NCBI GenBank assembly: GCA_002104905.1
Contig: MCFE01000722.1
Coordinates: 1-42,125, forward strand
Source of the DNA: Basidiobolus meristosporus CBS 931.73
Taxonomy: Eukaryota; Basidiobolomycota; Basidiobolomycetes; Basidiobolales; Basidiobolaceae
DNA length: 42,125 nt
Reading direction: 5' to 3'
In this document: positions 1 through 30,591 of the stretch, in pieces
Numbering within the stretch: the stretch's first letter is position 1
How the letters are laid out: every line of letters starts with the position of its first letter
Notes under the pieces: generated by a model
Databases searched by the model: none
What the model was told of the DNA's origin: nothing
Seen by the model: only the letters and a program-made list of their open reading frames with translations
Position numbers and translations under genes: made by a program

Positions 1-2
1 AC

Positions 3-3000
3 CACAGAGAACCTGGTTGCTGCAACTATTGTAAAAAGCCAGGACACTGGGCAAGAGAATGCAAGAAGAAACAAGCAGACAAAAAACAGAAACTAGAGCA
101 GGCAAACCATATAACTAGTGATGAACAGTTATTTGTAACCATACAAGAGAGTGCAAGTAACCAAAGTAATGAATGGTATATTGACTCTGGATCATCACAG
201 CATATTTGTGGTATAAAGGAGTGATTCAGCAACGTCAAAACTATTCCCGTAAGAAAAGTTTATCTGGGAGATAACTCTGCTCTGGAAGCTACTGCAAGTG
301 GGTCTATACAACTAAATATGAGCAATAGCTCAGGGGCAACTACAGCAAGACTCACTGACGTACTCTATGTACCTGGAATAGCTAAGAACTTACTCTCAGT
401 CAGTAAAGCAACTGCTCAGGGACTGAAATTTGCTTTTACTAAGATGAGCTGCTCAATATTGAGTGAGAATGGATAAAAATTAGCTTTGGGAATCAGAGAT
501 CACAGTAAATACAAGTTACAATGCAAGATCATTGTATCTGAGTATGTCAACATTGCTGAAACTGATGAAACCAACTGGGAGACGTGGCATAGGAGGCTGG
601 GACACATTGGGGAACAGAAAATGAGCCAATTGGTGAAAAATCAGCTTGTTTTGGGCCTAAAATACTCAATTCCAATCAAATTGAATATTTGTAAGGGATG
701 TTCATATGGCAAACAAGCTAGGCAACGTTTCAAGAGCCCAGAAGGCATCAATACCACCAAAATATTGGCTATTGTACACTCAGACATATGTGGCCCCATG
801 AGAACACTGACCTTTGGAGCCAAGAGATACTTTATGACGTTTATTAATGACAAAACAAGATATATATGGGTGTACTTCCTCAAAACAAAGGTTGAAGCTT
901 TAGAGATGTTTAAGCAATTCAAGAACATGGCTGAAACACAAACTGGGTGTAAATTGAAGGTACTACAAAGTGACAATGGAGGAGAATACTGCTCAAAAGA
1001 GTTTGCAAAGTACTGCTTGTCTATGGGTATACTTCAACAGACCACAGTTCCTCATACTCCACAGCAAAATGGAGTAGCAGAACGTGCAAATAGAACAATA
1101 GTCAAGATGGGAAGATCTATGCTATATGCTAAGGGAATGGACTGCAAGTCCTGGGCTGAATTTGTTGCTACCACAGTATACATCAAGAACAGATGTCCTA
1201 CAACAGCACTGCGTGATTCTACACCCTTTGAAGCATATACAGGCAAAAAACCAGATCTCCAGCACCTCAAGATCTTTGGCAGTGATGTTTTTTATCACAT
1301 CCCTGACAAAAAACGCCCAAAGTTGGAACCAAAGAGTAGGAAAGGGATCTTTCTTGGGTATTGTGAAGATACTAAAGGGTATAGAGTGTATGATGGCAAA
1401 ATTCAGAAGCTGATCAAGAGCAGGGATGTTGTATTTGAGGAGAATTCAGATCAGAAAGCCACAGAAATCATTGGCCAGCTGCCTGATGATGCAATCAACA
1501 CTAATGAAGAAGATACATACCAAATCCAGCCAGATACAGAAGATACTTCTACCAGTTCCAGATCAGAACAGATTATCCCAGTTAGGGGATCTACCAGAAT
1601 AAGAAATGCCCCTGGATCCTGGTGGCAGACATCCAATGATCATGACAAAGCTTATCTTGCCTTATGTGCCAAACCTCAGAATCTGGAACAGGCAATGCAA
1701 AGTCCAGTTGCTACTAAGTGGCAACAAGCCATGCAGGAGGAGTACCAATCACTGATCAAGGCAAAAATGTGGGAACTGGTAGATTTACCAAATGGGAGAA
1801 AGCCAATAGGATGTAGATGGTTCTGCAAGATCAAGATAACCTCAAATGGTGCTGTTGATAAGTACAAGGCTAGATTGGTGGCTAAAGGCTTTTCCCAGAT
1901 ACAGGGACTAGACTTTAAGGAAACATTTGCTCCGGTTGCCAGGTTTAACTCCATTAGGACAGTTCTAGTCCTGGCTGCTGAACACAGTCTAGATCTACAC
2001 CAAATGGATGTCAAAACAGCCTTTCTAAATGGGGATTTGCAAGAAACTATATATATGGAGCAACCAGAGGGCTTTACCAATCCAAAAGTGCCCCATAAGG
2101 TGTGCAACCTTAGAAAATTGCTGTATGGGCTTAAGCAGGCACCTAGAGCATGGTATAACAAGGTTGACACATATCTAGAGGAAATTGGGTTCTCTTGTAG
2201 CACTGCAGATCACAGTATATATGTGAAATAGCTCAAAAAGGGTGTGATCATCCTAGTTCTTTATGTGGACAACCTAATCATAGCTACAAGTGACCAAGAG
2301 GCACTTAAACAGACAAAATCAAATCTTTTCAGCAAGTTTGAGTTGAAAGATCTTGGAAAATTGAGCTATTTTCTTGGAATTAAGGTCAAATTTGACATAC
2401 CTACGCAGGAAATTGTGCTGAATCAGTCTAAGTACATCAGGGACATTTGTAGATGCTTCAAAATGGAAAATTGCAAGCCTGCAGCTACTACTATGGACAA
2501 TAACCTGAAATTAAGCAAATCTCAGCCAGTTATAGATGAAAACGGCTCAAGTATGGACCAAAACTTTCCCTATCAGTCAATGGTTGGTAGCCTAATGTAC
2601 TTGATGGTGTCTACATGTCCAGATATTGCAGTGGTAGTTGAATAGTCAGTCAATTCATGCAGAATTATGGATCAGATCAAGTTGCAGCAGTTATGCGGAT
2701 TTTCAAATCTCTACAAGGTACCATAAATATGGTACTGGAATACTCTGGAGCAGCTAATAGGCTTAAATTTGATGGTTATAATGATCCAGATTGGGGTAGT
2801 GATCTGATTGACAGATGCTCTACCACAGGCTATGTATTTCTTTATGCTGGTGCAGCTATTACTTGGAATTGCAAGAAACAACTAGTTGTGGCCCTATCTA
2901 CAACTGAAGCCAAATATATGGCTGCATGTCAAGCAACTAAGGAGGCTATATGGCTACAAAAATTATTCAACAACTTAGGTTTTAATTCAGATGAACCAAC

Positions 3001-3253
3001 ATGTATTTACAAGGATAATCAAAGTTGTATTTCATTAGCTAGAAATCCTACTAATCATGCCAGAACTAAGCACATTGATATACAGCATCACTTTGTGAGG
3101 GAAGCTGTAGAAAATAACTTAGTAGAGTTAGTGTACTGCCCAACTAACAAAATGGTGGCAGATATATTGACAAAACCACTAGCTAGGCCACAATTTGAGA
3201 ATCTCCAAGAGGAATTAGGATTAAGAAATTATTTAGTTGAGGGGGAGTGTTGA
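3..3253 (+). pseudogene. copia Gag-Pol polyprotein, inactivated
   Basis: The reading frame from base 3 begins with a CCHC knuckle (C-N-Y-C, GH, C) at 21-74. A protease with the DSGSSQH active-site motif follows at about 184-204. The integrase has an HHCC-type region (WHRRLGHIG near 585) and a DDE core seen in HSDICGP, QSDNGGEY and NGVAERANR. Reverse transcriptase (YKARLVAKGFSQ, QMDVKTAFLNGDL) and RNase H (ALSTTEAKYMAAC, YKDNQSC, ADILTKPL) follow. Breaks are TGA at 222-224, where related proteins usually have Trp before FS, TAA at 474-476, TAG at 2229-2231, TAG at 2643-2645, and a 1-nt frame change near 2644-2650 that restarts at VSQFMQN. The polymerase motif YVDD reads YVDN (about 2262-2273), so the second catalytic Asp is lost. 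Confidence 0.93.
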
Positions 3254-3616
3254 AATATTGGACTATTTGGTATCATTCTGCAGCTAAAAATTTACTTAGC
3301 AGTTCTGGACTAGTCTTGGTCACTGTGGGACTAATTTGCAGCTCTATCTTTGCCACTTTCTTCAGATCTATGATGTTATGATTATTCCCATATAGTCAGG
3401 TTCAAATTAGCACAAATACTAGCTATTATGTACTAACCCTGAAACTGTTACAGAATGCTCCTGAATATTGAGAAACCCTCCTTACTTAGTGTTAGAGCTA
3501 TATTACTTCTACAAAGGTATAAATACTGAGCTTCTTTATTAATGTACAACAGTTCAACTATTATCACTATTTCTTGATAAGTTCCTTATATCCAAATCAC
3601 TTCTTAAATTGCAACA
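3248..3616 (+). repeat. 3' LTR of the copia element
   Basis: The 369-bp segment starts TGTTG right after the polypurine tract and ends CAACA, the expected inverted TG...CA termini. It holds a TATA box (TATAAATA, 3518-3525) that would sit in U3. Its sequence differs from the 348-bp LTR family at 34302-37244, so two copia families are present. The boundary comes from the terminal inverted repeat only, because no second LTR copy is visible. Confidence 0.8.
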
Positions 3617-5209
3617 ATTATTGGCAATGGCCTTTGAAAGTCAGAGCCATTGTTGCTCTTCATACTAGATCATTTCCAATCAGATTTTAGAAGGGCTTTA
3701 TTTGGCTGAAGTATTAAACTTGATTTGACTTCACAAACACCTAAAAAAGTGACACCATATCTCATAAACTGCTTCTGTAGCTACTATTGCATTAGTGTGG
3801 CATAACTCAGAGCATGCTTTTATACTCTGGTCCAGTATTATTAGTGGTATACAGTATGCTTGGTTATCAATTAAGACATCTTTTAGCCACACCACATCCT
3901 ACATCAAGTATGCTAAGCCTAGGGCTCTCCCCCAACTTCTGATTGCTGATGCACAGAAAAAAGCCTCCCCCTGCCTTCACTCCTGTATCTACAAATAGGA
4001 TATTATCCATAGGCTTGGCCTACGCACTCTCAGGTGGGCATTACCAACATAGTAAGCATAAGCTTTGTAAGGATTAGAGATCTTGATTGGCAGCTTGCCA
4101 CAGCTAAGAAAGCATACTTAGTATGTGGCCATTGTATCATCCAACCCACAGTCAGACTGTTAGGACAGTAATTTTTATTTTCTGGTAATCTTGGCATTCA
4201 TTTGTTGCTTGGAGCTATTGAGAGAGATCAGCAAAGCACCAATGCTGCTTTGCTCTGTATCATTCCTGCTCCAAAACTATAATAGCCAAAGTTATTACCT
4301 ATCTTTGAAGTGGCAGCAAAGACCAGCAGCAGCCTTTAGCCTGTTGTTACAAACATCTGTACACTGCATCCTTTGGCTTGCTACTGGCTACAAGATCCCA
4401 TAGGGGATTGAAGTGCTATTTGGGTTGGCCTGTATATTTGCTTTTGCAGTGGTTTCTGATATTCATGCATTTCCTACAACACATTAACCAATTGGAAATT
4501 TGACTTCCTATAGCTATATGCAGGGCTTGAAAAATCATGAGAGATTATGATGGTGCATACAACTAGTTGGTAGCCACTGTACCCACAGGTTCATTTTTGC
4601 TCACTTTGATACCTTTCTACTTGAGAGCGATACCATATGCTTGTCTTGCCCATTTAAGTATTCTCCCACTGTTTACATTTTCTAGGATATATGCTTGTTA
4701 TGCATACCAGCCACCGGTGACTTAAACTTTGATACTAATAGGGATGTATGAAGCCATCTATATTCACATCTCTTACCAGGTAGTGTGCGTAAGTAATATA
4801 AAAAGCAAGGAACTGTTACCTGAAAATGGGATCAAGGACGCCAAAAGTTTGTATGAAGTACACACCACTTGGTACAGTTTGCTTTGCAGGAGTCAAAAAA
4901 AGATTTGCTACGATATCAAGTTCAAGTGAATATTTGGCTAGATGCAATGCATATTTGTCCTGGATGCATGAAATTTAGGATGCTGTGGATCGATCTCTAT
5001 CTCCTAAGATGTTAGAGCATTCCTGCATCCTTTTAAGCTCAATATAGGTGGGCTACACTGTATTATTACTCAACCGCCAGACACGCAGTACTTCATGCAT
5101 CAAGATAATTATCCAAGATTATTTTATTAGCATAAAAATGGTTCAATGCTAAAAATATTGGGTATTGGGGAAATAAATAATCGATAGATGTGCTCGTGAA
5201 GGCTGATGA
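3617..5209. other. AT-rich gene-poor stretch
   Basis: About 1.6 kb between the copia LTR and the first repeat-protein gene. The open frames are short (60-70 codons), have no family signature and use codons unlike the neighbouring genes. I see no tRNA, no LTR and no convincing exon. The last 150 bases probably hold the 3' UTR of the minus-strand gene that ends at 5210. Old transposon debris is likely but not recognisable. Confidence 0.6.
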
Positions 5210-6760
5210 TTAGATTCGGATCTGGATGCGGGGGAGGCAGATGATTGCTCTGACTTGGATGCCGAGAGCATCGACACGGGCTCTGATACCGTTGCATGCT
5301 CTTGTGTTACTACCTGAGCCATCGGTGGGATTGGGTCTGGGGGATGATGAGTCGCTCAAGCAGACAAATGCATTGGCGCGAATTCCTCCAGCAACGAGCC
5401 TGGCGGTGATATCGGGGCACCCAGTGGCTGGGGAGTTGCCACCTCCGTTGTTTCCTCCGTTGTTACCTCCATTGTTACCTCCATTATTGCCACCGTTATT
5501 GCCACCATTTCCGCCGCTTAGACAGACACTGGCATTCACCTTGATACCCAATAGGTTAGCATCGGCAACGATATCTGGGCAGCTGTTTCCTCCGGAGAGT
5601 GGGGGAGCGTTGGGTCCATTGTTTCCGCCGCTCAAGCAAATGCTTGCATCAACATTGATACCAAGAAGCTTGACCTTAGCAACGATATCAGGGCAGGTGG
5701 CTCCGTTTCCTCCATTATTGCCGCCGTTGTTTCCACCATTGTTGCCTCCGCTACCACCACCCAAACAGACACTAGCATTAACCTTGATACCCAATAGATT
5801 GGCGTCGGCAACAATATCAGGGCAGCTACTTCCACCTGAGAGTGGTGGGGCGTTGGGTCCGTTGTTTCCTCCGCTCAAGCAAATGCTGGCATCAACATTG
5901 ATACCAAGAAGCTTGACTTTGGCAACGATATCGGGGCAGGTGGCTCCGTTTCCTCCATTATTACCACCATTGTTACCACCGTTGTTACCACCATTATTGC
6001 CGCCGTTTCCGCCACCGCCACCACCACCACCTAAGCAAACGTTGGCGTTCACCTTGATTCCTAGGATATTGGCGTCAGCAACAATATCAGGGCAGCTGCT
6101 GCCACCTGAGAGTGGTGGACTTCCTCCGCCTCCTCCACCACCTCCTCCTCCCAAGCACACGTTAGCATCCACCTTGATGCCGAGGACATTCAATTTGGCC
6201 ACGATGTCGGAGCATGGGTTGCCGCCATTGTTGCCACCATTATTACCTCCGTTATTGCCGCCATTATTTCCACCATTTCCTCCGCCACCACCACCACCTC
6301 CGCCACCGAGACAAACATTGGCGTTGACCTTGATTCCCAGAATATTTGCATCGGCAACGATATCAGGGCAGCTATTACCACCAGAAATGGGGGGATTTCC
6401 GCCGCCGCCGCCGCCACCACCACCAAGACACACATTAGCATCCACTGGAACTCCTAAGACATTCAGCTTCGCGACAATATCATTGCAAGGGCCACTACCA
6501 CCGCCTCCTCCGCCTCCACCATTTCCTCCACCGTTACCACCACCATTGCCTCCGCCGTTGCCTCCTCCATTACCTCCACCATTACCTCCACCGTTGCCAC
6601 CGCCGTTGCCACCACCATTGCCACCACCGTTACCACCCCCACCACCACCGCCGCCGTTTCCTCCGCCATTGTTACCACGATAATGAGGCGGAGCAGCTGA
6701 GGCTAATCCTAGGGAGGAAATAGCCGCAAAGAATATTAAAGCCTTGGACGAGAATTTCAT
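5210..6760 (-). CDS. Secreted glycine/asparagine-rich repeat protein A, ten two-cysteine modules
   Basis: 516 residues, one exon. An N-terminal signal peptide (MKFSSKALIFFAAISS then LGLASAA, about 22 residues) precedes an APPHYRG start shared in outline with B and C. A Gly/Asn run (GGGN repeats, about residues 30-90) leads into ten copies of a module C-x18-C. Two types alternate: CPDIVAKxxxLGIxVDAxxC and CPDIVADANxLGIKVNAxVC. Linkers are GGGG, NNGG and APPLSGG. The last two modules are divergent (CPDITARLVAGGIRANAFVC, CNGIRARV...), and the protein ends LPRIQIRI. All 20 cysteines lie in modules. Hydrophobic and polar residues alternate across the second half of each module, as in beta strands. 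I know no family for it; an extracellular structural or surface protein is inference. Compared with B it lacks the first module pair. Confidence 0.88.
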   Translation of the reverse strand: MKFSSKALIFFAAISSLGLASAAPPHYRGNNGGGNGGGGGGGGNGGGNGGGNGGGNGGGNGGGNGGGNGGGNGGGNGGGNGGGGGGGGSGPCNDIVAKLNVLGVPVDANVCLGGGGGGGGGNPPISGGNSCPDIVADANILGIKVNANVCLGGGGGGGGGGNGGNNGGNNGGNNGGNNGGNPCSDIVAKLNVLGIKVDANVCLGGGGGGGGGGSPPLSGGSSCPDIVADANILGIKVNANVCLGGGGGGGGNGGNNGGNNGGNNGGNNGGNGATCPDIVAKVKLLGINVDASICLSGGNNGPNAPPLSGGSSCPDIVADANLLGIKVNASVCLGGGSGGNNGGNNGGNNGGNGATCPDIVAKVKLLGINVDASICLSGGNNGPNAPPLSGGNSCPDIVADANLLGIKVNASVCLSGGNGGNNGGNNGGNNGGNNGGNNGGGNSPATGCPDITARLVAGGIRANAFVCLSDSSSPRPNPTDGSGSNTRACNGIRARVDALGIQVRAIICLPRIQIRI

Positions 6761-6875
6761 ATTATTGTAAGTACAAAGATGATATAAGGGCCTCTATGAT
6801 ATAGAATTAAGTAGAATAATGAAGGCACCAATTGAGATATGCTGGAATGATACTTTTGGGTCAGTTCTTCACGGC

Positions 6876-6882
6876 ATTTATA
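6876..6882 (-). promoter_or_regulatory. TATA box of repeat protein A
   Basis: TATAAAT on the minus strand, 116 bp upstream of the ATG at 6760, in the 500-bp gap between genes A and B (6761-7260). I see no other gene in that gap. The neighbouring repeat-protein genes have a similar box upstream. Confidence 0.6.
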
Positions 6883-7260
6883 GAGAGCCACGAACCCCTT
6901 AAGCTCCGGGATCATTCGATGTACACTCTAGGAACACTGCAGATATTAGGATAGACATACTTAAATTTGGCTCGAAATTGCCGCCGCCCCTTTCTTTCCC
7001 TCTGGAGCGCTTTTGATGCTCCTAAGAATGATCACCACGCATGGTCACGTTGGTTCCAATCCATCATGAACGGCACTTAACCTTAAGGAGCTAATGCAGA
7101 TTGGAAGCAATCCCTTGGATGATGCATCGCTCTCACTTCATTCGCATCTCGACAGATATAGGGAGCGGTCTTTTGATATGGTTAGGAGTAATGCAGTTTA
7201 TTCATGATTTTGTTCTTAGTGGCATCACCCAGAAATAATATCGAAGCAATGAAAGCCTAT

Positions 7261-10200
7261 CTAGATGCGAATTTCAATACGTGGGAGGCAGATGATTGCT
7301 CTGACTTGGATGCCGAGAGCATCGACACGGGCTCTGATACCGTTGCATGCTCTTGTGTTGCCACCTGAGCCATCGGTGGGATTGGGTCTGGGGGATGATG
7401 AGTCGCTCAAGCAGACAAATGCATTGGCGCGAATTCCTCCTGCAACGAGCCTGGCGGTGATATCGGGGCACCCAGTGGCTGGGGAGTTGTTACCTCCGTT
7501 GTTTCCTCCATTATTGCCACCGTTATTGCCACCATTTCCGCCGCTTAGACAGACACTGGCATTCACCTTGATACCCAATAGGTTAGCATCGGCAACGATA
7601 TCTGGGCAGCTGCTTCCTCCGGAGAGTGGTGGCGCATTGGGTCCATTGTTTCTTCCACTCAAGCAAATGCTTGCATCAACATTGATACCAAGAAGCTTGA
7701 CCTTAGCAACGATATCAGGGCAAGTGGTTCCGCTTCCTCCATTATTACCACCGTTATTACCCCCATTATTACCACCATTATTGCCACCTCTACCTCCGCC
7801 CAAGCAGATATTGGCATTAACCTTGATACCCAATAGATTGGCGTCGGCAACAACATCAGGGCAGCTACTTCCACCTGATAGTGGTGGAGCGTTAGGTCCA
7901 TTATTTCTTCCACTCAAGCAGACGTTGGCATCGACCTTGATACCAAGAAGATTGACCTTGGCAACAATATCAGGGCAGGTGGTTCCGCTTCCTCCATTAT
8001 TCCCACCATTGTTGCCTCCATTGTTACCGCCGTTATTTCCTCCATTTCCACCACCCAAACAGACGCTTGCATTGATCTTGATGCCTAGCAGATTAGCGTC
8101 GGCAACAATATCGGGGCAGCTACTTCCACCTGATAGTGGTGGAGCATTGGGTCCATTGTTTCTACCGCTCAAGCAGACATTGGCATCGACCTTGACACCA
8201 AGGAGGTTGACCTTGGCAACAATATCAGGGCAGGTGGCCCCATTTCCACCGTTGTTTCCGCCATTATTACCACCGTTATTACCCCCATTGTTTCCTCCAT
8301 TACCACCACCCAAACAGACGCTGGCATTGATCTTGATGCCTAGCAGATTGGCATCAGCAACTATATCTGGGCAACTACTTCCACCGGATAGTGGTGGAGC
8401 GTTGGGTCCATTGTTTCCGCCGCTCAAGCAGACATTGGCATCGACCTTGATACCAAGGAGGTTGACCTTAGCAACGATATCAGGGCAGGTGGCTCCGTTT
8501 CCTCCATTGTTACCGCCATTATTACCTCCGTTTCCGCCACCGCTTCCTCCGCCTAGGCAGACATTAGCGTTGACCTTGATACCCAATAGATTGGCATCAG
8601 CAACTATATCTGGGCAGCTACTTCCACCGGATAGTGGTGGAGCGTTGGGTCCATTGTTTCCGCCGCTCAAGCAGACATTGGCATCGACCTTGATACCAAG
8701 AAGATTGACCTTGGCAACGATATCAGGGCAGGTGGCCCCGTTTCCTCCATTATTACCTCCGTTGTTACCGCCATTATTACCTCCGTTTCCGCCACCGCTT
8801 CCTCCGCCTAGGCAGACATTAGCGTTCACCTTGATACCTAGGATGTTGGCATCAGCAACGATATCTGGGCAGCTACTTCCACCTGAGAGTGGTGGAGCGT
8901 TGGGTCCATTGTTTCCACCACTCAAGCAGACATTGGCATCGGCCTTGATACCAAGAAGATTGACCTTAGCAACAATATCAGGGCAGGTGGCTCCACTTCC
9001 CCCATTATTACCACCATTATTTCCATTGTTGTTGCCGCCATTGTTACCACCGTTACCTCCACCCAAGCAAACACTGGCATTGATCTTGATGCCTAGTAGG
9101 TTGGCATCCGCAATGATATCTGGGCAGCTACTTCCACCCGAGAGCGGTGGGGCGTTGGGTCCGTTGTTTCCTCCGCTCAAGCAAATGCTGGCATCAATAT
9201 TGATACCAAGAAGCTTGACCTTGGCAACGATATCGGGGCAGGTGGCTCCGTTTCCTCCATTATTACCACCATTGTTGCCGCCGTTATTGCCTCCATTGTT
9301 GCCGCCATCTCCGCCACCACTTCCTCCGCCTAAGCAGACATTAGCGTTCACCTTGATTCCTAGGATGTTGGCATCAGCAACAATGTCAGGGCAACTACTT
9401 CCCCCAGAGAGTGGTGGGTTTCCGTTGTTTCCTCCGTTTCCTCCGCCATTACTACCACCACCTCCTCCTCCTAAGCATACGTTAGCATCCACCTTGATGC
9501 CGAGGACATTCAATTTGGCCACGATGTCGGGGCATGGATTGCCACCATTATTACCACCATTATTTCCGCCGTTATTGCCGCCATTGTTGCCACCGTTGTT
9601 GCCGCCATTGTTGCCACCGTTGTTACCGCCATTGTTGCCACCGTTGTTACCGCCATTGTTGCCACCGTTGTTACCGCCACCGAGACAAACATTGGCGTTG
9701 ACCTTGATTCCCAAAATATTGGCGTCAGCCACAACATCAGGGCAGCTATTACCTCCCGAGGTCGGCGGTGTGACTCCACCAGGGTTGCCACCCCCGCCAC
9801 CACCAAGACAAACATTAGCATCGACTGGAACTCCCAGGACATTCAGCTTTGCGACAATGTCATTGCATGAACCTCCTCCGCCATTCCCCCCATTACCACC
9901 ACCATTTCCTCCGTTGCCACCACCGTTGCCTCCATTACCGCCGCCATTTCCTCCGTTGCCACCGCCGTTGCCACCATTACCGCCGCCATTTCCTCCGTTG
10001 CCACTGCCGTTGCCTCCATTGCCGCCGCCATTTCCTCCGTTGCCACCGCCGTTGCCTCCATTGCCGCCGCCGTTTCCGCCGGTACATATCTTGGCATCCA
10101 CCCGGATATCCAGGGTTTTGGCGGCGGCCACCAGGTCGGGGCAGCTCATGCCCCCGGGATTCTTCCCGTCGGAACCGCCCGGTTTGCCGGCGCAAACTTT

Positions 10201-10356
10201 CGCATCGATGTGGGCGCCGTATGTGTTGAGCTTGGCGACGATCCCACGACAGTGGTCATGGTCGGATTTCACCTTGTAGCGGGGCAAGGCGGTCGAAGTC
10301 CCGGCCAGGGAAGCGATCACGGAGAATAGAAGGATGGCTCTGGTGGGAAGTCTCAT
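7261..10356 (-). CDS. Secreted glycine/asparagine-rich repeat protein B, twenty-two two-cysteine modules
   Basis: 1031 residues without an intron. The signal peptide is MRLPTRAILLFSVIASLAGT plus STA, followed by LPRYKVKSDHDH. There are 22 C-x18-C modules, or 11 pairs in strict alternation of a DIVAK...VDA type and a DIVADAN...VNA type. The first pair (CRGIVAKLNTYGAHIDAKVC, CPDLVAAAKTLDIRVDAKIC) is divergent and followed by a long GGN/GGGN tract. Inner pairs are joined by NNGPNAPPLSGG within a pair and by NNGG runs between pairs. The final pair matches A closely, and the tail is LPRIEIRI. All 44 cysteines are in modules. At the DNA level the 3' 200 bp differ from gene A at only a few bases, so the two are recent duplicates or are kept alike by gene conversion. 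Function unknown; a secreted matrix or wall role is inference. Confidence 0.88.
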   Translation of the reverse strand: MRLPTRAILLFSVIASLAGTSTALPRYKVKSDHDHCRGIVAKLNTYGAHIDAKVCAGKPGGSDGKNPGGMSCPDLVAAAKTLDIRVDAKICTGGNGGGNGGNGGGNGGNGGGNGGNGSGNGGNGGGNGGNGGGNGGNGGGNGGNGGGNGGNGGGNGGNGGGGSCNDIVAKLNVLGVPVDANVCLGGGGGGNPGGVTPPTSGGNSCPDVVADANILGIKVNANVCLGGGNNGGNNGGNNGGNNGGNNGGNNGGNNGGNNGGNNGGNNGGNNGGNPCPDIVAKLNVLGIKVDANVCLGGGGGGSNGGGNGGNNGNPPLSGGSSCPDIVADANILGIKVNANVCLGGGSGGGDGGNNGGNNGGNNGGNNGGNGATCPDIVAKVKLLGINIDASICLSGGNNGPNAPPLSGGSSCPDIIADANLLGIKINASVCLGGGNGGNNGGNNNGNNGGNNGGSGATCPDIVAKVNLLGIKADANVCLSGGNNGPNAPPLSGGSSCPDIVADANILGIKVNANVCLGGGSGGGNGGNNGGNNGGNNGGNGATCPDIVAKVNLLGIKVDANVCLSGGNNGPNAPPLSGGSSCPDIVADANLLGIKVNANVCLGGGSGGGNGGNNGGNNGGNGATCPDIVAKVNLLGIKVDANVCLSGGNNGPNAPPLSGGSSCPDIVADANLLGIKINASVCLGGGNGGNNGGNNGGNNGGNNGGNGATCPDIVAKVNLLGVKVDANVCLSGRNNGPNAPPLSGGSSCPDIVADANLLGIKINASVCLGGGNGGNNGGNNGGNNGGNNGGSGTTCPDIVAKVNLLGIKVDANVCLSGRNNGPNAPPLSGGSSCPDVVADANLLGIKVNANICLGGGRGGNNGGNNGGNNGGNNGGSGTTCPDIVAKVKLLGINVDASICLSGRNNGPNAPPLSGGSSCPDIVADANLLGIKVNASVCLSGGNGGNNGGNNGGNNGGNNSPATGCPDITARLVAGGIRANAFVCLSDSSSPRPNPTDGSGGNTRACNGIRARVDALGIQVRAIICLPRIEIRI
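9540..9680. repeat. Minisatellite encoding (NNGG)n in gene B
   Basis: A near-perfect 12-bp unit (plus strand: ccgccattgttg / ccaccgttgttg) repeated about eleven times in frame, giving NNGG copies in protein B between modules 4 and 5. Only third positions vary. The matching place in gene A (about 6221-6275) holds far fewer units, so the array length is evolutionarily labile. Confidence 0.8.
9885..10082. repeat. Minisatellite encoding GGN/GGGN in gene B
   Basis: An in-frame array of a unit of about 21 bp (plus strand: ccgccatttcctccgttgcc-like) that codes for GGNGGGN repeats between modules 2 and 3 of protein B. One unit carries a Gly-to-Ser change (GSGN). Gene A has a related GGGN run at about 6520-6680 directly after the signal peptide. 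Confidence 0.75.
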
Positions 10357-10574
10357 GGTTCAGCGGCCGAAAAATCTCGTTGTCTGGTTGGGAGGATGGG
10401 TGGATATTAGATGGAATAGAATAGGATTGGATTGGAGTGAATTGGATTGAATTGAATTGAATGATAGAATGAATGAATATGAGAACTTGAAATGGAGATC
10501 GGGAGGTCGCTCGAAACGAATCGAGTCGAGTTGTATGAACTGATTGATTGAGTTGATCTCGTTGGGTGGGAAGG

Positions 10575-10581
10575 TATTTAT
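10575..10581 (-). promoter_or_regulatory. TATA-like box of repeat protein B
   Basis: ATAAATA on the minus strand, about 220 bp upstream of the ATG at 10356. The rest of the gap 10357-11165 contains no gene I can support. It includes a purine-rich run on the plus strand at about 10920-10957 (ggagagg/ggaaagg units) near the 3' end of gene C. Confidence 0.45.
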
Positions 10582-11165
10582 GGAGATGGGATGGCTCAGG
10601 GGATACCACCCGGTGGCTCCATACTGCCTTTGGCTAGTTCGTGGTGCTCATGCAGACTGCATGGTCATCCATATATGGCAATCCAGGGAATCTCCCTACC
10701 GCCACCAACCTTGTTTCCCCTTGGGATCGGGTTGCCATTACGATCGCTTGTGTCACTAATGAATGCACGTGTCCCCTGAATTTAGCGCATGGATTTAGCA
10801 ATGCCACACTTTATGCTGGATGCAAGCGATCCCTCGTAGAATTTAGGGATCCGCTCGATCGGCAGGGAAACTAATGCGGTCTCGTTGGCAACATTAGCGC
10901 TGGGAATACATTGGGTGGAAGGGGAGAGGAGAGGAAAGGAGAGGAAAGGAAAGGAAAAATTGGATCCCCTCCGTGGAGACGGTCGAAAGTAATCAGATGC
11001 GGGACGGTAATTGGTCTCAATGGGAATTAATCGTTCCCAGATTTGGATTTATTGAAATGGCAGTTGGGTAGAAATTGTATACGTGAGTGAATGGATTGCT
11101 GCTAACTTATGTAAAAGGTTCATTTGATCATGATGGGAGGAGGGGGGAGTGGATAGTCTTGGGGA

Positions 11166-12488
11166 TTAGAGTCGGATCTCGATACGCGGAAGGCATACCA
11201 CTGCTCGAACTCGAATGCCTAGGGCGTTCACGCGGGCGCGGATCCCGTTGCACATACGAGAGTCGACTTGGTTGTTGGTGATAGGACGGGACGCCTCGTT
11301 TCCACTGAGACAGACGAAAGCATTGGCACGAATCCCAGATGCCACCAAACGGGCAGTGACGTCGGGACAGGTGGATGAGGACCCATTGCCAAGCCCATTG
11401 CCGAATCGATTCCCGGGTTGATTGTTGCCCCCGCTTAGGCACACGTCGGCGTTGATTTGGATGCCCAGGACGTTCGCGTCGGCAACGATGTCGGGGCACC
11501 GGTTGCCGCCTCGCAACCTTGGAATGAACTGACGCTCATTTCCTCCGTTGAGGCAGATGTCGAGATCCGCCCTGATGCCAAGAAGGTTCAGTCTGGCCAC
11601 GATGCCACGACAGGCATCGTCCCTGGGACCACGGCTGGATTGGTTGCGGCCACGGTTGTTTCCACTCAGGCAAACATCAGCATTGACTTGGATGCCCAGG
11701 ATATTTGCGTCGGCGACAATGTCTGGGCAGCTGGTTCCACCTGAGAGCGGACGGTCTCTACCACGACGGGCTCCGCCACCGAGACAGACATTTGCGTTCA
11801 CTTGAATACCGAGAAGGTTCAATCTGGCGACCACATCGGAGCAGGAACGATCCCTGTTACCGCCACGATTACGAACACTGCCATTCCCATTGCCGTTGCC
11901 GTTGCCGTTGCCATTTCTATTCCCATTCCCACCCAGGCAGATACTCGCGTCCAACTGAATCCCAAGCAGGTTGGCCTCGGCCACGATATCCGGACAGGTC
12001 TGACCCGCGTTGCGTCCCCTGCCTCTACCTAGGATCTCATCGACCTCGTTACCGATCCCTCTTCTACCGCCACCATTCAAGCATATGTTGGCATCGACCT
12101 TGATCCCCAATGCATTCAGCCTAGCCACTATATCATTGCAAGCGCCATTTCCGCGGCCTCTCCCTCTTCCGCCGCCACGACCGCCACCGTCACGGGGATT
12201 GCCACCAAGGCAAAGGTTGGCGTTCACGTTGATCCCTAGAAGGTTGGCATCGACGACCACGTCAGGGCACTCCATGTCCCTAGGACTGCGACCCCTACGG
12301 CCATTCCCCTCTTTTCCGATGCATACCGCGGCGTCGATGCTGGCCCCGAAAACGTTGAGCCGGGCCACGATCCCTTGGCAGTACTCACTGCCATAGCCGG
12401 ATTTAAAGTGGGAAGGGGCGGCAATGGTGCCGGACAAGAATGACAGCCCGGATATGAGAAGTAGGGTGTGTGTGGAAAACTGCACCAT
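11166..12488 (-). CDS. Secreted repeat protein C, ten two-cysteine modules with arginine-rich linkers
   Basis: 440 residues, one exon. Signal peptide MVQFSTHTLLLISGLSFLSG plus TIAA, then APSHFKSGYGSEY. There are ten C-x18-C modules. The first pair (CQGIVARLNVFGASIDAAVC, CPDVVVDANLLGINVNANLC) corresponds to the first pair of B, and the last pair (CPDVTARLVASGIRANAFVC, CNGIRARVNALGIRVRAVVC) to the last pair of A and B. Linkers differ from A and B: they are richer in Arg and Asp (GGRGRGRGNG, RNRGGNRDRS) plus one NG run (about residues 192-205). Lys in the module is often Arg or Gln. It is the diverged paralogue and supports purifying selection on the modules while linkers drift. The end is LPRIEIRL. 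Function unknown. Confidence 0.87.
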   Translation of the reverse strand: MVQFSTHTLLLISGLSFLSGTIAAPSHFKSGYGSEYCQGIVARLNVFGASIDAAVCIGKEGNGRRGRSPRDMECPDVVVDANLLGINVNANLCLGGNPRDGGGRGGGRGRGRGNGACNDIVARLNALGIKVDANICLNGGGRRGIGNEVDEILGRGRGRNAGQTCPDIVAEANLLGIQLDASICLGGNGNRNGNGNGNGNGNGSVRNRGGNRDRSCSDVVARLNLLGIQVNANVCLGGGARRGRDRPLSGGTSCPDIVADANILGIQVNADVCLSGNNRGRNQSSRGPRDDACRGIVARLNLLGIRADLDICLNGGNERQFIPRLRGGNRCPDIVADANVLGIQINADVCLSGGNNQPGNRFGNGLGNGSSSTCPDVTARLVASGIRANAFVCLSGNEASRPITNNQVDSRMCNGIRARVNALGIRVRAVVCLPRIEIRL

Positions 12489-12549: not shown

Positions 12550-12557
12550 TATTTATA
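12550..12557 (-). promoter_or_regulatory. TATA box of repeat protein C
   Basis: TATAAATA on the minus strand, 62 bp upstream of the ATG at 12488. This spacing would place the transcription start about 30 bp before the ATG and supports the chosen start. Confidence 0.65.
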
Positions 12558-15028: not shown

Positions 15029-16315
15029 CTAGTAAGCACCACTCTTGTGGGTCCGGCTTCGGCGTCTGTTGTGATGGCTGCTACCAGCCCCGAGCTTTTC
15101 CAGTAAGGCTTCCAGGCCACTAAGCTTGCTGCCCAACAATCCCGAGACACGGCTCAGTCCGGCTAGGATTCTACGGTTTCGACGGATACTGGCGCCGGAT
15201 AGTCGGAGATTCCCTCCAACGCCGCTGAGGCGTCTATTCAGAAGGGCAATCACTCTGGCAATGCGACGGAATGATCGGCTGGTGATATTGGTAACGTTGG
15301 TAACCTGATCGCCTCGGCCTCTACCTCCGCCTCCACCACCTCCATTACCGCCATTTCCTCCATCACCTCCGTTGCCGCCATTTCCTCCGCTGCCTCCATT
15401 ACCTCCATTGCCACCGCTGCCTCCATTACCACCGCTACCTCCATTTCCACCACCGCCACCGTTACCTCCATCACCGCCATCGCCTCCATCTCCACCGTCA
15501 CCACCATCACCACCGCTTCCTCCATTGCCACCACCACCTCCTCCTCGGCCGCCACCTAAACCGCCTCTTCCTCTAAGGCCACCTAAGCCGACTGTCCCCA
15601 AGTCGTAGCCGTTAATGATGATGTTCGTCAAACCACCAGCACCAGCATGTCCATTACCAATACCACCAACACCACCACCGCCACCGCCACTGCCACTGCC
15701 ACCATTACCATTACCATTACCACCGCCATTTCCGTTGCCTCCAGAGCCGCCATTGCCACCGTTTCCGCCATTGCCACCGTTGCCGCCAGAGCCGGAACCG
15801 TTTCCGCCGCCTCCGTTACCACCGTTACCGCCGTTGCCACCATCACCGCCATCGCCGCCGTTACCGGAACCGCCGTTGCCACCAGATCCACCATTTCCGC
15901 CGCTGCCACCGTTTCCGCCGTTTCCATTACCATTGCCACCACCGCCTCCGCCATTTCCGCCGTTCCCTCCATTTCCTCCATTGCCTCCGTTTCCTCCACC
16001 ACCGCCGCTACCACCGTTCCCGCCGTTACCACCATCACCGCCATTTCCACCGCTACCACCGTTGCCCGAGCCAGAGCCGCCGCCGCCGCTGCTGCCGCCA
16101 CCCCAGAAATCGAAGTCGTCGTAACCACCATCGCCGCCGCCACCGCCACCACCGATACCGTCCAAGCCGTTCAGGATCTCCTCGATCTCCACATCGTTGA
16201 AGTTGGAGACAGAAGAACCTTTGTTACCATAACCGGGCTCGGCGGACACCAGGTGGCTCGAGAGAAGGGAGGTGCTTAGGAGAGCGAGCGAGAGGAGGGC
16301 GCGGGAGAGATGCAT
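15029..16315 (-). CDS. Secreted glycine-rich protein D with acidic N-terminal and basic C-terminal ends
   Basis: 428 residues from the ATG at 16315, which starts a clear signal peptide (MHLSRALLSLALLSTSLLSS plus HLVSA). A longer frame reaches back to 16723, but its added part crosses the TATA box and is Thr/His/Arg-rich junk, so I reject it. Order: signal; acidic segment (NDVEIEEILNGLDG, YDDFDFW); about 270 residues of GGN, GGS and GGD repeats broken by a short hydrophobic patch (LTNIIINGYDLGTVGLGGLR); then a basic tail of about 90 residues (RSFRRIARVIALLNRRLSG, RRNRRILAGL) that can form amphipathic helix, ending HKSGAY. The tail starts with an RGD inside GRGRGDQV. No C-x18-C modules and no cysteine in the mature chain. 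It shares orientation, Gly linkers and a TATA box with A-C. Function unknown. Confidence 0.82.
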   Translation of the reverse strand: MHLSRALLSLALLSTSLLSSHLVSAEPGYGNKGSSVSNFNDVEIEEILNGLDGIGGGGGGGDGGYDDFDFWGGGSSGGGGSGSGNGGSGGNGGDGGNGGNGGSGGGGGNGGNGGNGGNGGNGGGGGGNGNGNGGNGGSGGNGGSGGNGGSGNGGDGGDGGNGGNGGNGGGGNGSGSGGNGGNGGNGGNGGSGGNGNGGGNGNGNGGSGSGGGGGGVGGIGNGHAGAGGLTNIIINGYDLGTVGLGGLRGRGGLGGGRGGGGGGNGGSGGDGGDGGDGGDGGDGGNGGGGGNGGSGGNGGSGGNGGNGGSGGNGGNGGDGGNGGNGGGGGGGRGRGDQVTNVTNITSRSFRRIARVIALLNRRLSGVGGNLRLSGASIRRNRRILAGLSRVSGLLGSKLSGLEALLEKLGAGSSHHNRRRSRTHKSGAY

Positions 16316-16503
16316 GCTGTTGGAAGTGTGAGTGCGGATGCGGATGCGGATGCGGTTGAGAGATGAGTTGGCTCGATTGGTATTTCCCGAGGAGGATCGC
16401 GCGATTGGGAGTTTGCGTTGGTGAGTTGTGTGGACGTGGCACCGAGAGGGGAAGAGGTCGCCGGAGGTGGAAAGGGTAGTGGGCATTGGACGGGAGGGGA
16501 GGG

Positions 16504-16510
16504 TTTTATA
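16504..16510 (-). promoter_or_regulatory. TATA box of repeat protein D
   Basis: TATAAAA on the minus strand, 189 bp upstream of the ATG at 16315. It falls inside the longer open frame that continues to 16723, which is the main reason to prefer the internal ATG. Confidence 0.65.
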
Positions 16511-17135
16511 GGTTGGGAGGGGGCGATCTTTGTGACGGGTTGTTTGAGAACTCACATCACCGGAGGGGGTGCGTGTGGGAGGTGGGTGGCTGGTTATGGC
16601 GAATGTGAATGTGAATGTGATTGCGAAGGCGGTAATGGTGGTAATCGTGGCAATGGTGGTAATGACGATTTGTTGATGCCGATGTCGATGCTGATACTCA
16701 TGCTGATCATCTGTAGATGCCAAGCGCTTGAATCAGCTGTTTGGAAGGCTGACAGCATGTCTGGATGTCGCCCATTGGCCATGACGGGTGGGTTTCGCTT
16801 ACCCTGATGATCACTTCAGGATTGTTTCAACCTGAGGGCGGTGAAACATCGGTTGGGTTGGAGTGTCAACATAGTAACCCATCGGAGCCAGACCCGCTTG
16901 CATCGGTTGTGCATGAGTGTTTCAACAGATGTTGCTATCCACATCACCAGACGGCCCAGCACATACCAGCCACGGCCTGCAGCACGCATACCACACCCAC
17001 CAAGAGAAAGAGAGCCCGTCGGCCAGGAATGCGAAGCATGTAATGGTGGTTGTTTACTTTAATAAGAATTTTCAAGGAAACACTGGGTGATGGGAAGATT
17101 GAGTGATGTAGGGTGGGGCAGAGTAGGGTAGGGAT
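16511..17135. other. Gap between repeat protein D promoter and the NDUFA9 3' end
   Basis: About 620 bp. It contains a simple run tgtgaa/ggtaatggtgg (about 16601-16670) that resembles linker DNA of the repeat genes but has no start or signal peptide. No gene supported. Confidence 0.45.
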
Positions 17136-29630: not shown

Positions 29631-29853
29631 GGTGGCGATGACAAGTTTAAAGCTGAGACGGAGAGCTTTCAACTCGATTTAATGCCAGGTTGATTAAAAT
29701 CCGATAAATATTGTTTTGACCCCAGGGAACGAAACATGGGGCAATTATTGATGTTTGATTAGAATGTGCTCCTTGCTGATCGTACCAGTTTAGCCTTGAT
29801 GCCACCGGATGAATCGATATGAAACGTTGCTACTTCGCCACAGTCACTTGAAG

Positions 29854-29860
29854 TATAAAA
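29854..29860 (+). promoter_or_regulatory. TATA box of the trefoil-like secreted protein
   Basis: TATAAAA, 72 bp upstream of the ATG at 29926. An upstream in-frame ATG at 29809 would lie before this box and is therefore not used. Confidence 0.65.
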
Positions 29861-29925
29861 TTCCAAAAGTGAGTGGGAACGCCTACCCCCTCCCACTGTC
29901 CCGTTTAGCCATTTGCTCTGGTCTC

Positions 29926-30591
29926 ATGTTTCGGGCGCTCGCTTATCTTTGCTTGTTCTTTGGGTGCCTTCTTACTTTCACCGATGCCTTCTACAACCAG
30001 AATATTGCATGTGGCTGGCCAGATATCACAAGATATGAGTGCATGAGGCGAACTGGGTGTCAATGGTCGCCAGTGTATGGTACTGGGTACTCGGGGTATT
30101 CTTGCTTCTATCCCCCGCTGGAGGTAAGTGTAAGGGCTCGCTGCGGCCCCGAGTCAATCACTCTGTACGAGTGCACCCATGATAGAAGCTGCTTGTATGA
30201 GGAATCCAAAACGGGAAATCCATCTTGCTTTCACAAGAAACCACCTGCTGGTTCTAGCGCTACTGATCAGAGCATTGATTGTGGTTTCCCTGAGATGCAA
30301 GCCACAGAATGCCCAATCGACTCGGGTTGTCAGTGGTCACCCGGCAATGGATTGAATTGGTGCTATTTCCCGAGAGATAAGCTTATCAATCAAAGGACAA
30401 CCCCATGCGGAAACCAAGCTTCAAGAGTGGAATGCACGAAGGTAAACAAGTGTCTCTTTGATACTCTAGCTACGGGAAGCGCTACCACATGCTTCTACAA
30501 CCCCGGTGGAAAGCCCAAGCCGGATATACCAGAGGGGTTCGAGGCTGTTGAGACCTCAACGCAGTCCGTGTCAGAGACCGTAAATGTTTAG
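29926..30591 (+). CDS. Secreted cysteine-rich protein with four trefoil-like 4-Cys modules
   Basis: 221 residues, no intron. The start MFRALAYLCLFFGCLLTFTD plus AF is a clear signal peptide. Four modules follow, each with four cysteines in the pattern CG-x(6-8)-EC-x(5-6)-C-x-[WYF]-x(n)-C-[FY]. Examples are CGWPDITRYECMRRTGCQW ... SCFYP and CGFPEMQATECPIDSGCQW ... WCYFP. Modules 1 and 3 are alike (GCQWSP), and 2 and 4 are alike (SCLYEE / KCLFDT), so the array is two ABAB pairs. The layout recalls the P-type (trefoil) domain, but the usual GCC is GCQ, and two of its six cysteines are absent. The C-terminus is a short Thr/Ser-rich tail. No GPI signal is seen. Role unknown; an extracellular glycan-binding or wall-associated protein is possible. 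Confidence 0.85.
   Translation: MFRALAYLCLFFGCLLTFTDAFYNQNIACGWPDITRYECMRRTGCQWSPVYGTGYSGYSCFYPPLEVSVRARCGPESITLYECTHDRSCLYEESKTGNPSCFHKKPPAGSSATDQSIDCGFPEMQATECPIDSGCQWSPGNGLNWCYFPRDKLINQRTTPCGNQASRVECTKVNKCLFDTLATGSATTCFYNPGGKPKPDIPEGFEAVETSTQSVSETVNV

What the first reader, a model, noticed from the sequence alone, without database searches (positions are those of the whole stretch)
5210..12488. Undescribed protein module: C-x18-C repeats in two alternating types, up to 22 per chain
Proteins A, B and C contain 10, 22 and 10 modules of exactly 20 residues from Cys to Cys. Types alternate strictly (DIVAK...VDA and DIVADAN...VNA), every cysteine is in a module, module number is always even, and the first and last pairs are distinct capping versions. 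Hydrophobic residues alternate (for example VNLLGIKVDANVCL), as in beta strands. Gly/Asn linkers separate them. I recognise no Pfam family. Bacterial chaplins and fungal hydrophobins are secreted, two-cysteine, beta-forming surface proteins and are the nearest idea, but the pattern differs. A self-assembling coat, adhesive or matrix protein is inference.
Basis: partly seen in the sequence, partly recalled or inferred. Interest (0 to 1): 0.87.

Follow-up and report, generated by a model that had tools for sequence, protein, structure and literature searches.

The report
Basidiobolus-only cysteine-pair coat protein family
The fungus Basidiobolus carries dozens of related genes, seen in no other organism in our searches, whose proteins string together up to 22 copies of a 20-residue two-cysteine unit and are predicted to be secreted, where they would likely act as a sticky coat or glue on the fungal surface.

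Summary
Genes A, B and C (window 5210-12488, minus strand) carry 10, 22 and 10 modules of exactly C-x18-C. All 84 cysteines lie in them. The genome is Basidiobolus meristosporus CBS 931.73, judged by matching proteins and contig lengths. It holds at least 48 open frames with two or more modules on 14 contigs, some of them alleles or fragments. Three searches of about 5.8 billion proteins returned 27 distinct relatives, all from B. meristosporus or B. ranarum. No credible Pfam, NCBIfam or PDB relative was found. Linkers are Gly/Asn, Asp-rich, Pro-rich or long hydrophilic, so they look like interchangeable spacers. The shortest members have one pair, resembling the C-terminal cap pair of the long ones. 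Selection is purifying. The fold is unresolved: periodicity and covariation favour a beta-hairpin, while the better AlphaFold model (pLDDT 71) gives a helix for the first arm. Function as a secreted adhesive, wall or surface-active coat is inference; hydrophobin and chaplin membership tests fail.

The parts
5210..6760 (-). gene A: 516 aa, 10 modules (5 pairs), Gly/Asn linkers
   Evidence: purifying selection
7261..10356 (-). gene B: 1031 aa, 22 modules (11 pairs), Gly/Asn linkers
11166..12488 (-). gene C: 440 aa, 10 modules (5 pairs), Gly/Arg/Asn linkers
6695..6760 (-). A: N-terminal hydrophobic stretch, likely signal peptide (residues 1-22; cleavage point not predicted)
   Evidence: hydropathy; inference
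10288..10356 (-). B: N-terminal hydrophobic stretch, likely signal peptide (residues 1-23)
   Evidence: hydropathy; inference
12420..12488 (-). C: N-terminal hydrophobic stretch, likely signal peptide (residues 1-23)
   Evidence: hydropathy; inference
10084..10251 (-). B: N-terminal cap pair, Cys 36 to Cys 91
12210..12380 (-). C: N-terminal cap pair, Cys 37 to Cys 93
5237..5419 (-). A: C-terminal cap pair, Cys 448 to Cys 508; resembles the two-module short proteins
7288..7470 (-). B: C-terminal cap pair, Cys 963 to Cys 1023
11193..11369 (-). C: C-terminal cap pair, Cys 374 to Cys 432
11661..11852 (-). C modules 5-6 with flanks: the module pair used as target for structure prediction
6877..6882 (-). 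TATAAA 122 bases before the ATG of A
   Evidence: consensus match only
12552..12557 (-). TATAAA 69 bases before the ATG of C (no exact TATA[A/T]A within 350 bases before B)
   Evidence: consensus match only

Best explanation
A, B and C belong to a protein family, found only in Basidiobolus in these searches, that is built from pairs of C-x18-C modules; the proteins are predicted to be secreted and likely work as multivalent sticky or surface-active coat proteins on hyphae or conidia. Shown: the module pattern, the near-fixed spacing inside pairs, different linker types, many copies in the genome, genus restriction at this sensitivity, and purifying selection. Inferred: each module folds back on itself at the conserved Leu-Gly turn and is closed by its own Cys1-Cys20 disulphide, giving a small amphipathic hairpin with one hydrophobic face (positions 4, 6, 8, 10 and 13, 15, 17, 19, 21). 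Two such hairpins form one domain of about 60 residues. Flexible Gly/Asn (or Asp-, Pro-rich, hydrophilic) spacers string 1 to 11 domains together, so one chain makes many weak contacts with wall, surfaces or other chains. Short one-domain members would be soluble or surface-active units; long ones would be cross-bridging units. The adhesive material on the capilliconidia of this fungal group is one place where such a protein would be needed; that link is not tested.
For: 42 of 42 window modules C-x18-C, all 84 Cys inside modules. Pair gap nearly fixed, inter-pair gap variable (first seen). Hydrophobic N-termini, and no strongly hydrophobic segment at the C-termini of A, B, C (19-residue hydropathy at most 1.22). 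48 distinct frames with at least 2 modules on 14 contigs, 42 of 48 with a Met followed by a hydrophobic run (crude regular expression; one of the 42 is a fragment). Several kinds of linker. All 27 distinct relatives from Basidiobolus: 2 of 2, 21 of 21 and 6 of 6 hits in three searches, two proteins shared between the first and third. Copy A' differs from A by 12 synonymous and 0 non-synonymous changes; modules of C versus the P0002 gene dN/dS 0.11. Beta-type alternation in arm 2, and in arm 1 of the short members. Covariation between arms is highest on the antidiagonal i+j=23 (permutation p 0.001-0.04 over six settings), led by 5-18 and 6-17. Acidic residues at both 7 and 16 in 2 of 147 modules, 8.7 expected. 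Adhesive on capilliconidia of Drechslerosporium, a genus of Basidiobolaceae (PMC13370150, passages); a 1994 paper title on the adhesive droplet of Basidiobolus ranarum capilliconidia (reference list only).
Against: AlphaFold2 on the pair, the better of two models, gives helices at residues 4-13 and 42-51 and no strand (pLDDT 71, pTM 0.51); the short-member model that shows hairpins is poor (pLDDT 56). In long members arm 1 has no significant strand or helix period (peak at 60 degrees). Chou-Fasman averages do not decide arm 1 and lean to helix in the short members. The covariation is confounded by relatedness; without the 5-18 pair its p is 0.009-0.09, and the sum-27 diagonal (3 pairs) ties with 23 in the full alphabet. 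Two basic residues at 7 and 16 are not avoided (20 seen, 18.3 expected). In the Asp-rich chains (C1148, C455) gaps between pairs are about as short as those inside, and in the C1003 protein shorter, so spacing alone does not mark the pair there. A naive parse that misses modules with an inner Cys loses the contrast (sd 31 for both). No expression, localisation or disulphide data exist here. Genus restriction rests on a word-based search; only the roughly 8000 candidates sharing most words were scored. Low aromatic content (no Trp; 1-2 Tyr in A, B and C) speaks against a DOPA-type glue. Nothing ties the genes to capilliconidia.
Confidence: 0.45

Rival explanations
1. The module is a helix-turn-strand unit (helix 2-11, Gly12 cap, strand 13-20, Cys1-Cys20 closing), and the pair is an ordinary small disulphide domain that binds a ligand (for example wall polysaccharide or an ion) rather than assembling.
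For: AlphaFold2 pair model with 51 rows gives helices at 4-13 and 42-51. P/D at position 2, D at 3 and Gly12 followed by Ile13 look like helix caps (the capping rule is recalled). Chou-Fasman helix above strand in arm 1 of two of four groups, tied in one.
Confidence: 0.35
2. Precursor of small secreted peptides: the chain is cut between modules (Kex2-type repeat protein, like Ustilago Rep1 repellents), and the pairs act as free peptides.
For: B. meristosporus CBS 931.73 has 43 predicted Kex2-processed repeat proteins, the most populated strain of that survey (PMC7329392, passages; which genes they are was not seen); Rep1 peptides confer surface hydrophobicity (PMC3032640 passage).
Against: No KR or RR site in A or B, three RR in C that do not separate the pairs regularly.
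Confidence: 0.1
3. Host- or microbe-interacting secreted proteins (amphibian gut, bacteria), with modules as binding or antimicrobial units; copy number driven by that interaction.
For: Tandem, expanded, genus-private secreted cysteine proteins are typical of such roles (recalled); two-module forms in a tandem array on C946.
Against: Conserved rather than diversifying: 0 of 12 coding differences between A and its C875 copy alter the protein; no motif points to a target.
Confidence: 0.25
4. Known domain missed by the first reader: Pfam reports DUF2583 (44.6 bits) and GPHH (39.5 bits) above their cut-offs for protein B.
For: scores.
Against: No single stretch passes on its own (0 stretches); the best stretches are partial matches of 24-29 residues, so the score is summed over repeats; A and C do not reach either cut-off, and neither family is listed for the ten relatives.
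Confidence: 0.02

Closest known systems
Chaplins of Streptomyces (ChpA-C, PF03777)
   Same: Secreted; hydrophobic domain of about 40 residues with two Cys that can form an intramolecular disulphide in four short chaplins (D, F, G, H); surface-active (PMC5618249 passages). Long chaplins carry more than one domain (recalled).
   Different: No PF03777 match at E<=1 in the 13 proteins scanned or in the genome (controls silent); up to 22 modules; pair as unit; conserved Leu-Gly turn and C-x18-C.
Hydrophobins (PF01185, PF06766)
   Same: Fungal, secreted, cysteine-rich; UniRef labels 5 of 21 short members with a name beginning 'Hydrophobi' (truncated; basis of the label unknown).
   Different: Hydrophobins carry an 8-cysteine marker region (PMC6784888 passage); the short members have 4 module Cys. 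No Pfam match in 13 proteins.
Ustilago repellents (Rep1) and other Kex2-processed repeat proteins
   Same: Large secreted repeat protein; surface hydrophobicity is the analogous job (passages).
   Different: A and B have no Kex2 sites; modules carry Cys pairs.
Curli-type repeat amyloids (CsgA; recalled, no call)
   Same: Repeats of about 20 residues with two arms around a turn.
   Different: No Gln/Asn ladder, Cys-closed modules, long flexible spacers.

Membership tests
Hydrophobin | eight Cys in C-CC-C-C-CC-C spacing (spacing recalled; 8 Cys from PMC6784888) | tested here: not met
   Cys of A, B, C only as isolated C-x18-C modules, no CC; short members have 4 module Cys
Hydrophobin | match to PF01185 or PF06766 | tested here: not met
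   no match at E<=1 in 13 proteins scanned; genome search with PF01185 gave 0 but its controls also rang in 0 of 14, and PF06766 was not searched genome-wide, so true hydrophobins elsewhere in the genome are not excluded
Hydrophobin | self-assembly into an amphipathic layer at an air-water interface | not testable with these tools
   needs protein
Chaplin | match to PF03777 | tested here: not met
   no match at E<=1 in 13 proteins; genome 0 with silent controls
Chaplin | two Cys per domain forming an intramolecular disulphide | tested here: inconclusive
   two Cys per module shown; bond not shown. A lone C-x16-C module between pairs in L014/L019 suggests bonding within the module
Kex2-processed repeat protein | signal peptide plus tandem repeats | tested here: met
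   repeats; signal peptide judged from hydropathy only
Kex2-processed repeat protein | dibasic sites between repeats | tested here: not met
   0 KR/RR in A and B, 3 RR in C
Amphipathic beta-hairpin protein | beta periodicity in both arms | tested here: inconclusive
   unfiltered: arm 2 p 0.003 long, 0.06 short; arm 1 p 0.014 short, 0.17 long; AlphaFold2 models disagree

The most novel reading that the evidence does not exclude
Basidiobolus, a lineage branching outside the Dikarya, invented its own counterpart of hydrophobins and chaplins: a new disulphide-closed hairpin domain, used singly as a surfactant-like unit and strung up to 11-fold as a bead chain in the glue or coat of its conidia, with a gene family of dozens of members.
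Probability: 0.3. Interest if true: 0.75.

Novelty: new variant of a known kind. Interest (0 to 1): 0.58.

Why it matters
Surface proteins of fungi outside the Dikarya are poorly known; [quoted passage not shown] A domain family of dozens of genes with one strict module, several linker types and natural one-domain members offers a ready test of how such fungi make spore glue or water-repellent walls. The Gly/Asn bead chains are also a candidate for designed adhesive or surfactant materials.

Tried and rejected

Rows dropped. Pair alignment A5: 84 unique odd-even pairs with a gap of at most 32 were thinned at 93% identity to 52 and one out-of-register pair was left out by hand, leaving 51. Covariation: 147 x18 modules after requiring set residues at 4, 13 and 15; without that filter there are 154, some of them out-of-register spans, and the periodicity result stands; covariation itself was not rerun unfiltered. 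Frame count: C968, C358 and the C1191 fragment did not pass the filter. Pair gaps: the first count held some genes twice; the recount by genomic place uses 38 even-numbered chains of 45, and gives the same contrast when four look-alike contigs are left out (sd 3.0, n=79, against 34.8, n=51). The intermediate recount missed modules with an inner Cys on C448, lost the phase there and gave sd 31 for both classes.

Literature: in these listings, with Basidiobolus plus hydrophobin, secreted/cysteine/repeat, small secreted proteins, gene family/cell wall, or capilliconidia/adhesive, I saw no title or abstract start that describes this family. Only passages were read of PMC7329392, PMC13370150, PMC5126542, PMC6784888, PMC6733946, PMC5618249, PMC8778642 and PMC3032640; the rest were seen as listings; subscription journals are mostly not held.
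Full report
WHAT IS THERE. Three neighbouring minus-strand genes, each one open frame: A 5210-6760 (516 aa), B 7261-10356 (1031 aa), C 11166-12488 (440 aa). They contain 20, 44 and 20 Cys; 42 of 42 consecutive Cys pairs are C-x18-C and no Cys is outside a module. Random placement gives on average 0.7-1.8 such pairs. The module consensus from 108 unique 20-mers of the family is C-[P/D/N]-[D/G]-[I/L]-V-A-[K/R/D]-[L/A/V]-N-[A/L]-L-G-I-K-V-[D/N]-A-x-V-C. Gly12 (99 of 108) and Leu11 (85 of 108) mark a turn. All three proteins begin with a hydrophobic stretch that looks like a signal peptide and lack a strongly hydrophobic C-terminus. No signal-peptide program was available.

WHOSE GENOME. The protein P0002 found is named K493DRAFT_362012 of Basidiobolus meristosporus CBS 931.73 on a contig of 42253 bases; the same gene lies on contig C1003, 42253 bases, of the window's own genome. 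P0003 of the same strain lies on a 188334-base contig, the length of C946. So the window is from that strain.

THE PAIR AS THE UNIT. Counting distinct frames by genomic place, 38 of 45 have an even number of modules. In these the gap from an odd to the next even module has median 18, quartiles 18-21, sd 2.8 (n=114); from even to odd, median 26, quartiles 20-32, sd 32 (n=76), up to 154. 98 of 114 gaps inside pairs but 24 of 76 between pairs lie in 16-22. Leaving out four look-alike contigs changes little (sd 3.0 and 34.8). In the window alone the contrast is significant for A (p 0.009) and B (0 of 5000) and not for C (p 0.43). In the Asp-rich chains the two kinds of gap are alike, so there the pair is marked by module type rather than spacing. 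A simpler parse that missed modules with an inner Cys did not show the contrast in sd. Short proteins of 100-134 aa carry a single pair and resemble the C-terminal cap pair of the long ones (beside): polar residue at position 5, hydrophobic at 18, a further alternating stretch after the last Cys.

THE FAMILY. Protein C matches 76 places in its genome, a short member 68 and a diverged member on C431 40. With a stated motif filter, 48 distinct frames with at least two modules lie on 14 contigs; three of them are pieces of one broken copy of B on C875, and several contigs look allelic (C875 to the window; C1148 to C455; C200 to C946; C295 to part of C602), so the number of genes is lower. Linkers differ by group: Gly/Asn (window, C875), Asp-rich (C1148, C455), Gly- or Pro-rich (C602), Lys-Pro-Gly-rich (C448, C968), long hydrophilic stalk before one terminal pair (C847, C587). 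A conserved pair with different spacers is what one expects if the pair does the work.

RELATIVES. Three searches of about 5.8 billion proteins returned 2 of 2, 21 of 21 and 6 of 6 hits from Basidiobolus, 27 distinct proteins in all; only the roughly 8000 best candidates by shared words were scored, so distant relatives may be missed. Five of the 21 short members bear a UniRef name beginning 'Hydrophobi' (cut off in the listing); Pfam finds no hydrophobin or chaplin at E<=1 in the 13 proteins scanned. NCBIfam (6 proteins) and PDB (protein C) give nothing credible.

SELECTION. Contig C875 matches the window at 95% over 5.6 kb. Between A and its C875 copy there are 12 synonymous and 0 non-synonymous differences over 512 compared codons. 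Modules of C against those of the P0002 gene give dN 0.30, dS 2.8, ratio 0.11; the first pairs of B and C give 0.29; A against C is saturated at synonymous sites with dN 0.19. The genes are constrained; in A, the linkers too (11 synonymous, 0 non-synonymous outside modules).

FOLD. For a hairpin: in arm 2 (13-21) hydrophobicity alternates with a strand period (0.64, shuffle p 0.003, long members; 0.51, p 0.06, short). In arm 1 (2-11) it does so in short members (0.69, p 0.014) but not significantly in long members (0.36, p 0.17; helix period 0.29, p 0.33; peak at 60 degrees) (no residue filter, with filter, gives the same picture). Mutual information between columns of 147 modules is highest on the antidiagonal i+j=23 (mean 0.047 full alphabet, where the sum-27 diagonal with 3 pairs ties; 0.053 reduced alphabet). 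Permutation p is 0.001-0.04 over six settings and 0.009-0.09 without the strongest pair 5-18. Position 5 hydrophobic with 18 polar, or the reverse, holds in 137 of 147 modules. The two window module types differ at 7 (Lys/Asp) and 16 (Asp/Asn), which would be opposite each other; acid at both occurs in 2 of 147, 8.7 expected, but base at both is not avoided (20, 18.3 expected). Relatedness inflates all these numbers. Against: AlphaFold2 on the pair with 51 rows gives helices at 4-13 and 42-51 and no strand, pLDDT 71; on a short member, hairpins at pLDDT 56; propensities do not decide. No structural neighbour was found for the pair model, which means little at this confidence. I hold the hairpin at about 0.55.

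FUNCTION. The best-supported reading is a predicted-secreted, multivalent structural protein: amphipathic disulphide units on flexible spacers, acting as coat, surfactant or adhesive. In the family Basidiobolaceae, capilliconidia of Drechslerosporium have a beak covered with adhesive material, and Basidiobolus is said to share the capacity to form capilliconidia (PMC13370150 passages); an ultrastructural paper on the adhesive droplet of B. ranarum capilliconidia is cited in PMC5126542 (title only). Ustilago shows that a large repeat protein can take over the hydrophobin job (PMC3032640 passage). In 2018 hydrophobins outside the Dikarya were reported as first examples, in Caulochytrium and Mortierella (PMC6784888 passages). 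None of this tests the Basidiobolus genes; expression and localisation are the missing facts.

VERDICT.

Noticed in passing
window 1-3617: Retroelement (frames read like a Copia-type polyprotein; not scanned with Pfam) with 35 other matches of 3.2 kb or more at 90-94% in the genome (35 of 3588 candidates scored, so a lower bound). The otherwise 95% identical contig C875 stops matching at window base 3617, so the insertion is probably absent from that copy.
   Followed up: partly
L009 (C875) 1-2510: The C875 copy of gene B starts at the contig edge and is broken into three frames, while the neighbouring copy of A is intact.
   Followed up: partly
window 15029-16723, minus strand: Gly/Asn/Ser-rich ORF with a likely internal signal-peptide start, without the Cys modules and without a Pfam match; a second glycine-rich, possibly secreted protein next to the array.
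   Followed up: partly
window 29809-30591: Possibly secreted protein with three matched Trefoil (P-type) stretches (PF00088, E 1.5e-17), a domain better known from animal mucosa (recalled).
   Followed up: partly
window 39279-41795, minus strand: Two frames that read like a non-LTR retroelement (endonuclease and reverse transcriptase); not scanned.
   Followed up: no
L014 404-1093 and L019 7096-8301: A lone C-x16-C module stands between pairs, with both Cys kept, which hints at a disulphide within a module.
   Followed up: no
L015, L016 (C448 14000-28500): Six members in strictly alternating orientation (three on each strand), with near-identical N-terminal parts and variable Gly-His-Tyr-Asn-rich tails (one has a different tail).
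   Followed up: no
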